Positions 29,478 to 31,159 of a DNA stretch of 64,000 nt are shown one piece after another. The notes beneath the pieces are model-generated. The model saw only the letters and a program-made list of their open reading frames with translations, did not search any database and was not told the DNA's origin. Positions within the stretch are counted from its first letter, which is position 1. The number at the start of each line of letters is the position of its first letter. The DNA lies in the NCBI GenBank assembly GCA_033816765.1, contig CM066297.1, positions 62,001 through 126,000 of the forward strand, written 5' to 3'. This stretch comes from Nothopassalora personata. Its lineage: Eukaryota > Ascomycota > Dothideomycetes > Mycosphaerellales > Mycosphaerellaceae. A program made the translations under genes and the position numbers.

Positions 29478-31159
29478 ATGGGGCTCCTACAAGACGCCGC
29501 TGTCGCCTTCGACACGCACTTTGGCAGCACGTCCACCTGGAAACTCGCTACATCCGCATTCGCCATTTTCGTTGCCGTCGCCATCTTCCTGAACGTCGCG
29601 CAGCAGCTTCTTGTTAAGAACCCGAACGAGCCTCCGATTGTCTTCCACTGGATCCCTTTCTTCGGCAGCACCATCTCCTACGGCATTGAGCCCTACAAGT
29701 TCTTCTTCGCCTGTCGCGAGAAGTACGGCGATGTCTTCACGTTCATACTACTCGGCAAGAAGACGACAGTGTGCCTGGGCACGAAGGGCAACGACTTCAT
29801 TTTGAATGGAAAACTGAGGGACGTCAATGCGGAGGAGATCTACAGCCCTCTGACTACACCCGTATTTGGCAAGGATGTCGTCTACGACTGTCCTAACCAC
29901 AAGCTCATGGAGCAAAAGAAGGTATGCGCCGGTGGTGTTAGCATTGCCAATGCCTTGCTAACACGATCTTGCAGTTCGTCAAGTACGGCCTCACGTCATC
30001 CTCTCTCCAGTCCTACGTGATCCTGATCGCAAACGAGACTCGCCAATTCTTCTCCAAGGAGAACCCCCACAAGAAGTTCGCTGCCAATAGCGGCACGCTC
30101 GATCTCCCTCCTGCCATGGCCGAGCTCACAATCTACACTGCTAGCCGATCGCTGCAAGGCAAAGAGGTCCGTGAGCGATTCGACGCATCCTTTGCCGACC
30201 TCTACCACGACCTCGATCAAGGCTTCACACCCATCAACTTCATGCTTCCTTGGGCACCTCTACCTCAAAACAGAAAGCGCGACTATGCGCAGAAAAAGAT
30301 GGCGGAGACTTACATGTCAATCATCAAGGAGCGTCGCAACAACGGTGAGCTAAAGTCGCAGAGCCGTGAGGAGGACATGATTTGGAACCTGATGCAGTGC
30401 ACATACAAGGATGGAACTCCACTTCCGGACCGTGAGATTGCGCACATGATGATTGCTCTGCTCATGGCTGGTCAGCACTCGTCTTCTGCCACATCGTCTT
30501 GGATCATGCTGCGACTTGCGACCAGACCAGATATCCAAGAAGAGCTGCTGCGAGAACAAAAGGCCGTTCTCGGCACGAAGCACGACGGCACCATCAACGA
30601 CTTGTCCTTCGAGAAGCTCGGAAAGCTCCCACTCCTCAATCAAGTCGTCAAGGAGACCCTGCGTATCCACGCTCCGATCCACTCGATCTTGCGCCAAGTC
30701 AAATCACCCATGCCAATCGAAGGCACACCGTACGTGATCCCGACCACCCACACCCTTCTCGCAGCACCAGGCGCTTGCAGTCGAATGGATGAGCATTTCC
30801 CCGATTCACTCTTATGGGAGCCGCATCGATGGGACGAGAGGCCGGAGGGCAAGTACGAGCACCTGGTACCAGCGATGGTGCGGGAAGGTGTCGCAGAGGA
30901 GAAGGAGGACTCTGGATACGGTCTCGTCAGCAAGGGCGCAGCATCTCCGTACCTTCCATTCGGTGCTGGACGGCATCGATGCATCGGCGAGCAGTTCGCG
31001 TACGTGCAGCTGCAGGCTATTACTGCTACAGTGATTCGAGATTTCAAGTGGCAGAACGCGGATGGCAGCAACGATGTCGTGGGCACAGATTACAGCAGTC
31101 TATTTTCGAGACCGCTCAGTCCGGCGGTCATCAAGTGGGAGCGAAGAGAGAAGAAGTAG
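29478..31159 (+). CDS. CYP51: Sterol 14-alpha-demethylase (eburicol demethylase), cytochrome P450
   Basis: Two exons (29,478-29,921 and 29,975-31,159) encode 542 aa, the usual CYP51 length. The 53-nt intron has GTATGC, a GCTAAC branch point and TTGCAG. An N-terminal membrane anchor (about residues 18-45) leads to IPFFGSTISYGIEPYKFF. Substrate-contact and family motifs are present: TPVFGKDVVYDCPN, GQHSSSATSSW (I-helix), KETLRIHAPIHSILR (K-helix ExxR) and PFGAGRHRCIGEQFAY with the haem cysteine at about residue 484. It removes the 14-alpha methyl group in ergosterol synthesis at the ER and is the azole fungicide target. The positions equivalent to Z. tritici V136, Y137, A379, I381 and S524 look wild type, but the position equivalent to Y459 is Ser461 (TCT, 30,911-30,913). 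The similarity to Mycosphaerella-group CYP51 is judged from memory. Confidence 0.97.

What the first reader, a model, noticed from the sequence alone, without database searches (positions are those of the whole stretch)
30911..30913. CYP51 has Ser461 where homologues have Tyr (azole-resistance hotspot)
The local sequence is EEKEDSGYGLVSKGAASP; CYP51 proteins of related fungi have Y-G-Y here. Changes at this tyrosine (Y459 in Zymoseptoria tritici, Y461 in Pseudocercospora fijiensis numbering) to S, D, N or H are known from azole-selected field strains. The TCT codon is one transversion from TAT. Either the strain carries a resistance allele or serine is the native residue of this species. Other hotspots look wild type.
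Basis: partly seen in the sequence, partly recalled or inferred. Interest (0 to 1): 0.75.

Follow-up and report, generated by a model that had tools for sequence, protein, structure and literature searches.

The report
Fungicide-target change in peanut fungus
The gene that azole fungicides attack in what is most probably the peanut late leaf spot fungus carries, at a position where nearly all compared relatives have tyrosine, a serine of the kind known from azole-resistant field strains, and the same genome carries matching changes in the targets of two other fungicide classes, so it is probably a fungicide-selected resistance allele.

Summary
Window 29478-31159 encodes an intact, single-copy, 542-residue CYP51; codon 461 (30911-30913) is TCT, serine. 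Of the 120 listed homologues, 118 have tyrosine there, one phenylalanine and one serine (a divergent Myriangium paralogue). S461 is the window's only departure at 213 columns that are at least 95% conserved. The two nearest relatives have Tyr. The residue equals Z. tritici Y459, P. fijiensis Y461 and C. albicans Y447. The other main CYP51 hotspots compared are wild type.

The genome is very probably Nothopassalora personata (peanut late leaf spot), probably isolate CBS 151044. The same assembly carries beta-tubulin E198A, a classic benzimidazole-resistance change, and cytochrome b G137S, beside an intron right after codon 143. Changes in the targets of three fungicide classes favour a selected azole-resistance allele over a native serine, but no other isolate and no EC50 for this one could be examined. 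It is a known kind of change; my searches showed no report of it in this species. Moderate interest.

The parts
28938..29477 (+). Intergenic region upstream of CYP51 (promoter side)
   Evidence: No tandem repeats (minimum score 30, 27500-32500) and no direct repeats of 12 bases or more; so no sign of promoter repeats of the kind linked to CYP51 over-expression in P. fijiensis (passages)
29478..29921 (+). CYP51 exon 1 (codons 1-148; includes V135 and Y136, wild type)
29922..29974 (+). CYP51 intron, 53 nt, GTATGC...CTTGCAG
   Evidence: the spliced product aligns over its full length with homologues
29975..31159 (+). CYP51 exon 2 with stop TAG (codons 149-543)
   Evidence: Pfam p450 E 7e-53
30911..30913 (+). 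Codon 461, TCT = Ser, where 118 of 120 listed homologues have Tyr
30959..30988 (+). Heme-binding motif FGAGRHRCIG (residues 477-486), beginning 16 residues after S461

Best explanation
This is the sole CYP51 (sterol 14-alpha-demethylase) gene of a Mycosphaerellaceae leaf pathogen, very probably Nothopassalora personata of peanut. It carries a derived Tyr-to-Ser substitution at the azole hotspot Z. tritici 459 / P. fijiensis 461 / C. albicans 447, most likely selected by triazole use in the crop. The tyrosine sits in the fungus-specific loop ahead of the heme-binding motif, in the nearly invariant motif DYG[FY]G. Its loss is inferred to weaken azole binding while the enzyme keeps making ergosterol. 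Shown here: sequence, single copy, derived state, homology to the hotspot, and co-occurrence with target-site changes for two other fungicide classes. Inferred: selection by azoles, reduced sensitivity of this isolate, and the structural route.
For: Tyr in 118 of 120 listed homologues and in both nearest relatives, P0039 (93% identity over its 398-residue piece) and Dothistroma septosporum P0001 (91%); the window's only departure at 213 conserved columns; a tree of 21 of the 121 rows puts the change on the window's tip, with P0116 a separate origin. The equivalent substitution is listed for Z. tritici, Y459S, found in 2 French isolates of 311; P. fijiensis Y461D/N/S was seen only in strains with reduced sensitivity, in a study of 266 strains as told in PMC12300740; P. 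musae Y461N was in all 5 insensitive and none of 7 sensitive isolates, with its highest resistance factor, 9.1, for tebuconazole; C. albicans Y447H gave an 8-fold higher fluconazole MIC in a Pichia test, and the alignment sets S461 on residue 447 of the chain of 5v5z (C. albicans by recall). Same genome: beta-tubulin E198A and cytb G137S in both copies on contig C17. N. personata is sprayed with triazoles, and a study of four isolates gives an average tebuconazole EC50 of 18.22 mg/L (above its highest test dose of 10 mg/L) against 1.56 for prothioconazole.
Against: No other isolate of the species could be read (none of the 120 listed proteins is above 93% identity), so fixation in the species is not excluded. 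No EC50 for this isolate. If the ancestral codon was TAC (17 of 18 Tyr codons here; TAC at codon 461 in P. musae), two base changes are needed, which fits less well with very recent selection. One departure from conserved columns is an ordinary number for these proteins (median 1). SDHB reads as wild type at the hotspots I recall although SDHI fungicides are also used on peanut. P0116 shows that Ser can occur here in a natural, if divergent, CYP51. C. albicans Y447H left itraconazole and voriconazole MICs unchanged. The published structural models disagree on whether the tyrosine touches the azole.
Confidence: 0.76

Rival explanations
1. Serine is the native, fixed residue of this species: a lineage-specific substitution unconnected with fungicides, perhaps giving some inherent azole tolerance.
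For: No second isolate was available; TCT is two changes from TAC, the codon used for 17 of 18 tyrosines in this gene; one divergent natural CYP51 (P0116) also has Ser; S461 is one of 10 positions at which the window differs from both nearest relatives where these agree.
Against: The column is Tyr in 118 of 120 listed homologues, including both nearest relatives; of the 10 differences just named it is the only one at a column at least 95% conserved; two other fungicide targets in the same genome carry resistance-type changes.
Confidence: 0.17
2. The substitution is selected but acts indirectly: it is a background or compensatory change, and any reduced azole sensitivity comes mainly from CYP51 over-expression, efflux or detoxification.
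For: In N. personata, cyp51 transcript was 3- to 23-fold higher in three isolates that were less sensitive to tebuconazole than NRRL 64463, and GST expression tracked resistance.
Against: No promoter repeats in this isolate; the homologous C. albicans Y447H alone raises the fluconazole MIC; P. musae Y461N tracked insensitivity in 12 of 12 isolates.
Confidence: 0.05
3. The serine is a sequencing or assembly error.
For: Reads were not available; one base decides the residue.
Against: The gene is otherwise intact, with no other oddity at conserved columns; the change falls on a known hotspot; two further resistance-type substitutions occur elsewhere in the assembly.
Confidence: 0.02

Closest known systems
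Zymoseptoria tritici CYP51 Y459S (and Y459C/D/N/P, deletion of Y459/G460)
   Same: Same alignment column and same substitution, listed as a target-site change; found in 2 of 311 isolates collected in 2019.
   Different: In the Z. tritici haplotype, Y459S occurs together with L50S and I381V; here I381 is wild type and position 50 corresponds to Pro, as in 92 of 120 homologues.
Pseudocercospora fijiensis CYP51 Y461S/D/N
   Same: Same residue number and substitution, reported only in strains of reduced sensitivity (passages of PMC12300740); leaf pathogen of the same family.
   Different: P. fijiensis resistance is also linked to 19-bp promoter repeats; none here.
Pseudocercospora musae CYP51 Y461N
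   Same: Same residue, greatest effect on tebuconazole.
   Different: Asn, not Ser.
Candida albicans Erg11 Y447H
   Same: Homologous residue by alignment, in the fungus-specific insertion loop; causal by site-directed mutagenesis.
   Different: His, not Ser; of fluconazole, itraconazole and voriconazole only fluconazole was affected.
Cercospora beticola CYP51 Y464S
   Same: Tyr-to-Ser by an A-to-C change, found in three resistant strains; in the same YGY motif.
   Different: It is the second tyrosine of the motif (Z. tritici 461), not the first.

Membership tests
CYP51 (sterol 14-alpha-demethylase) | Full-length similarity to fungal CYP51 proteins | tested here: met
   91% identity over 100% to the D. 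septosporum homologue; best PDB match 6cr2, named Cyp51B (Aspergillus fumigatus by recall), E 3.4e-213
CYP51 (sterol 14-alpha-demethylase) | Heme-binding motif FxxGxxxCxG | tested here: met
   FGAGRHRCIG at residues 477-486
CYP51 (sterol 14-alpha-demethylase) | 14-alpha-demethylase activity | not testable with these tools
   Needs enzyme assay
Azole target-site resistance allele | Substitution at a residue documented as an azole hotspot | tested here: met
   Alignment to Z. tritici 459 and C. albicans 447; literature passages
Azole target-site resistance allele | Derived relative to close relatives | tested here: met
   Tyr in P0001, P0039 and 118 of 120 listed homologues
Azole target-site resistance allele | Polymorphic within the species, wild type in unexposed isolates | not testable with these tools
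Azole target-site resistance allele | Reduced azole sensitivity of the carrier | not testable with these tools
   No EC50 for this isolate; a study of four other N. personata isolates gives an average of 18.22 mg/L for tebuconazole, their CYP51 alleles not told in the passages seen
Azole target-site resistance allele | Promoter repeats causing over-expression (P. fijiensis type; not needed for a coding-change allele) | tested here: not met
   No repeats upstream
Species: Nothopassalora personata, isolate CBS 151044 | Published species MAT1-1 forward primer and P4R primer matched on chromosome 12 | tested here: met
   One exact match at C12:636760, with the reverse site giving a 997-bp product; the paper gives 759 and 997 bp for MAT1-1 and MAT1-2 'respectively', so the length agrees with one of the two but the label does not
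Species: Nothopassalora personata, isolate CBS 151044 | 5.7-Mb chromosome 6 | tested here: met
   C6 is 5,701,418 bases; paper: 5.7 Mbp
Species: Nothopassalora personata, isolate CBS 151044 | Species-specific ITS2 primer CP5F | tested here: inconclusive
   No exact match, but no 5.8S rRNA was found in the assembly either

The most novel reading that the evidence does not exclude
The sequenced genome of the peanut late leaf spot fungus records three fungicide eras in one assembly: benzimidazoles (beta-tubulin E198A), strobilurins (cytb G137S, taken because an intron directly after codon 143 bars the usual G143A) and triazoles (CYP51 Y461S). Y461S would then be a main cause of the weak action of tebuconazole, compared with prothioconazole, on this species.
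Probability: 0.5. Interest if true: 0.6.

Novelty: new member of a known kind. Interest (0 to 1): 0.45.

Why it matters
If true, a genome that others may take as the wild-type reference for N. personata CYP51, cytb and beta-tubulin is a resistant genotype, which would mislead marker design. It also gives three concrete loci for monitoring peanut leaf spot, where the 2025 paper I saw in passages, and the title of a 2020 paper that it cites, describe resistance tests by phenotype, and a testable reason for the tebuconazole/prothioconazole difference. For CYP51 biology it adds another apparently independent loss of the first tyrosine of the DYGYG motif.

Tried and rejected
Considered and rejected: a frame or splice artefact (the spliced protein aligns end to end); a second CYP51 paralogue (only the two exons of this gene score as CYP51, next best 46.3 bits); promoter repeats. 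A first guess of species, Fulvia fulva, was dropped: its published assembly is 67.17 Mb in 14 contigs, against 54.5 Mb in 40 contigs here, while N. personata details match. ITS identification failed because no 5.8S rRNA was found in the assembly. A search for G137S with QoI and cytochrome b gave 0 papers, and a second, with Venturia effusa names, listed 6 papers, none holding G137S; my recollection that G137S is known from pecan scab (Venturia effusa) is therefore unchecked. The original chromosome-scale genome paper is not held. Structure prediction was not run: it returns no coordinates for azole distances. SDHC/D exons were fetched but not read.

Papers: passages only (what='find') for PMC3124474, PMC8706352, PMC9453070, PMC11716363, PMC7011104, PMC12300740, PMC5094580, PMC11718120, PMC7650562, PMC10875216, PMC5108816, PMC6467933, PMC3116904; part 1 of 3 of PMC10122357; the whole text of PMC13348378. 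All other papers: search listing only.

Full report
Observation. The CYP51 gene lies on the + strand at 29478-31159, with one 53-nt intron (29922-29974), and encodes 542 residues. Codon 461, at 30911-30913, is TCT. The whole-genome coordinate is C11:92911, and the same codon is read there. The assembly (G000, 54.5 Mb, 40 contigs) shows no second CYP51: only the two exons of this gene match strongly, the next match scoring 46.3 bits.

Conservation. A search gave 3341 homologues, of which the best 120 are listed and were all aligned. At position 461, 118 of 120 have Tyr, one has Phe (P0096) and one has Ser (P0116, a second Myriangium duriaei P450). P0116 departs at 21 conserved columns, so it is a poor guide to normal CYP51. 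The window's protein departs at only one of 213 columns that are at least 95% conserved, and that one is 461. The control tempers this: the median number of such departures among the 121 rows is also 1 (D. septosporum 0, Lecanosticta acicola 1, P0039 3), so what is notable is which column it is. Where P0001 and P0039 agree, the window differs at 10 positions, and 461 is the only one of them at a column that is at least 95% conserved. The nearest relatives, the 398-residue piece P0039 from an unnamed source (93%) and Dothistroma septosporum NZE10 (91%), both have Tyr. A tree of 21 of the 121 rows joins the window with P0039 (99/96) and then D. septosporum (100/100); the change to Ser lies on the window's own tip. 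Nine of that tree's 18 inner branches are drawn open (weak) and P0116 is a long branch, but the two forks that place the window are well supported.

Identity of the site. Alignment to a Z. tritici entry (P0008) puts S461 on residue 459; the unified nomenclature lists Y459C/D/N/S/P/deletion there and equates it with Y461 in P. fijiensis. Alignment to chain 5v5z (C. albicans by recall) puts it on residue 447. The other main hotspots compared (window V135, Y136, A313, G314, A381, I383, G462, Y463, S526) are wild type. P0008 itself differs from the Z. tritici wild type printed at residues 50, 188 and 461, so the reference set includes a variant that looks azole-exposed.

What is known of the site. 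Z. tritici Y459S was found in 2 of 311 isolates. P. fijiensis Y461D/N/S was seen only in strains with reduced sensitivity (passage). P. [quoted passage not shown] C. albicans Y447H, made by site-directed mutagenesis and expressed in Pichia, raised the fluconazole MIC 8-fold but left itraconazole and voriconazole MICs unchanged. Two published models disagree on the route: one puts Z. tritici Y459 within 3 A of docked azoles, the other finds C. albicans Y447 solvent-accessible in a flexible, fungus-specific loop, acting through local structure. I favour the loop effect slightly, as an inference.

Which fungus. The published N. personata MAT1-1 forward primer matches once, exactly, on contig C12, and the reverse primer site lies so as to give a 997-bp product; the MAT locus of this species is on chromosome 12, and the length equals one of the two printed amplicon sizes, although the paper prints 997 for MAT1-2. 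Contig C6 is 5,701,418 bases, and the paper speaks of the 5.7-Mbp chromosome 6 of isolate CBS 151044. The CYP51 gene begins 91 kb from the start of contig C11; in the related C. fulvum it lies 123.7 kb from a telomere. An ITS primer did not match, but no 5.8S rRNA was found in the assembly, so this says nothing. I take the species as N. personata (about 0.9) and the isolate as CBS 151044 (about 0.75).

Fungicide history in the same genome. The beta-tubulin gene at L033 reads ...VENSDATFCID..., GCG at codon 198; alignment with solved beta-tubulins fixes the position as 198, where four of the five alignments displayed have Glu and one has Ser. A second beta-tubulin-like copy in the same genome keeps Glu there; it matches in several pieces, and the stops read between them may lie in introns. 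E198A is the benzimidazole-resistance substitution reported in most species, 20. Cytochrome b reads VLPYSQMSLWG, with AGT at codon 137 in both copies on contig C17; F129 and G143 are unchanged, and the three alignments displayed have Gly at 137. By eye, an intron follows codon 143 directly; in species with such an intron G143A would prevent correct splicing. G137R is an established strobilurin-resistance change; G137S I recall from pecan scab, but two searches did not show it. SDHB appears wild type at the hotspots I recall.

Weighing. A native serine and an azole-selected serine make different predictions for other isolates, which could not be read here. What can be said is that the change is the window's only one at a strongly conserved column, falls on a known hotspot, is absent from the nearest relatives, and sits in a genome that carries resistance-type changes for two other classes used on the crop. 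The disease is treated with tebuconazole, prothioconazole, azoxystrobin and thiophanate-methyl, among others. Against this stands the codon: 17 of 18 tyrosines here are TAC, and TCT is two steps from TAC. I put the resistance-allele reading at 0.76.

Print status. A 2025 study of four N. personata isolates measured tebuconazole EC50 (average 18.22 mg/L, beyond the highest dose tested, 10 mg/L), noted cyp51 expression and looked the gene up, but the passages I saw report no allele. Searches for the species names with CYP51 and other terms (25 of 447 papers listed), for Y461S with CYP51 (2 papers) and for Y459S with CYP51 (1 paper) showed no report of this substitution in this species; subscription journals are mostly not held.

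Noticed in passing
G000:C1:6621549-6622019 (-), locus L033: Beta-tubulin codon 198 is GCG (Ala) where Glu is usual: the classic benzimidazole-resistance substitution E198A.
   Followed up: yes
G000:C17 around 5868 (+) and the inverted copy within C17:71500-81000; loci L046, L052: Cytochrome b codon 137 is AGT (Ser, G137S), with F129 and G143 intact and an intron directly after codon 143.
   Followed up: partly
G000:C17 (136,179 bases): The contig with the mitochondrial cytb gene holds two inverted copies of the cytb region: a real inverted repeat or an assembly artefact.
   Followed up: no
G000:C1:631924-632801 (-), loci L035, L038: A second beta-tubulin-like copy, matched in several pieces with stops between them (introns or damage, not tested), that keeps Glu198.
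   Followed up: no
window 4001-12000: AT-rich block (28-29% GC against about 53% from 18 kb on) on the side of the contig start; CYP51 lies some 11-12 kb beyond the edge of the low-GC zone near 18 kb. It looks like mutated subtelomeric repeats, an inference.
   Followed up: no
window 27297-28430 (+), 28374-28937 (-), 31594-35178 (+): Neighbours of CYP51: a polysaccharide deacetylase-like gene, a carboxymuconolactone decarboxylase-like gene, and a large reading frame with an HhH-GPD DNA glycosylase domain.
   Followed up: partly
G000:C6:2314380 and 3305688; C6:2178595 and 2230280: Two pairs of P450 matches on contig C6 with identical scores, as if recently duplicated; chromosome 6 is also the one with missing stretches in other isolates.
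   Followed up: no
protein P0116 (Myriangium duriaei): A divergent CYP51-like paralogue that naturally has Ser at this position.
   Followed up: partly
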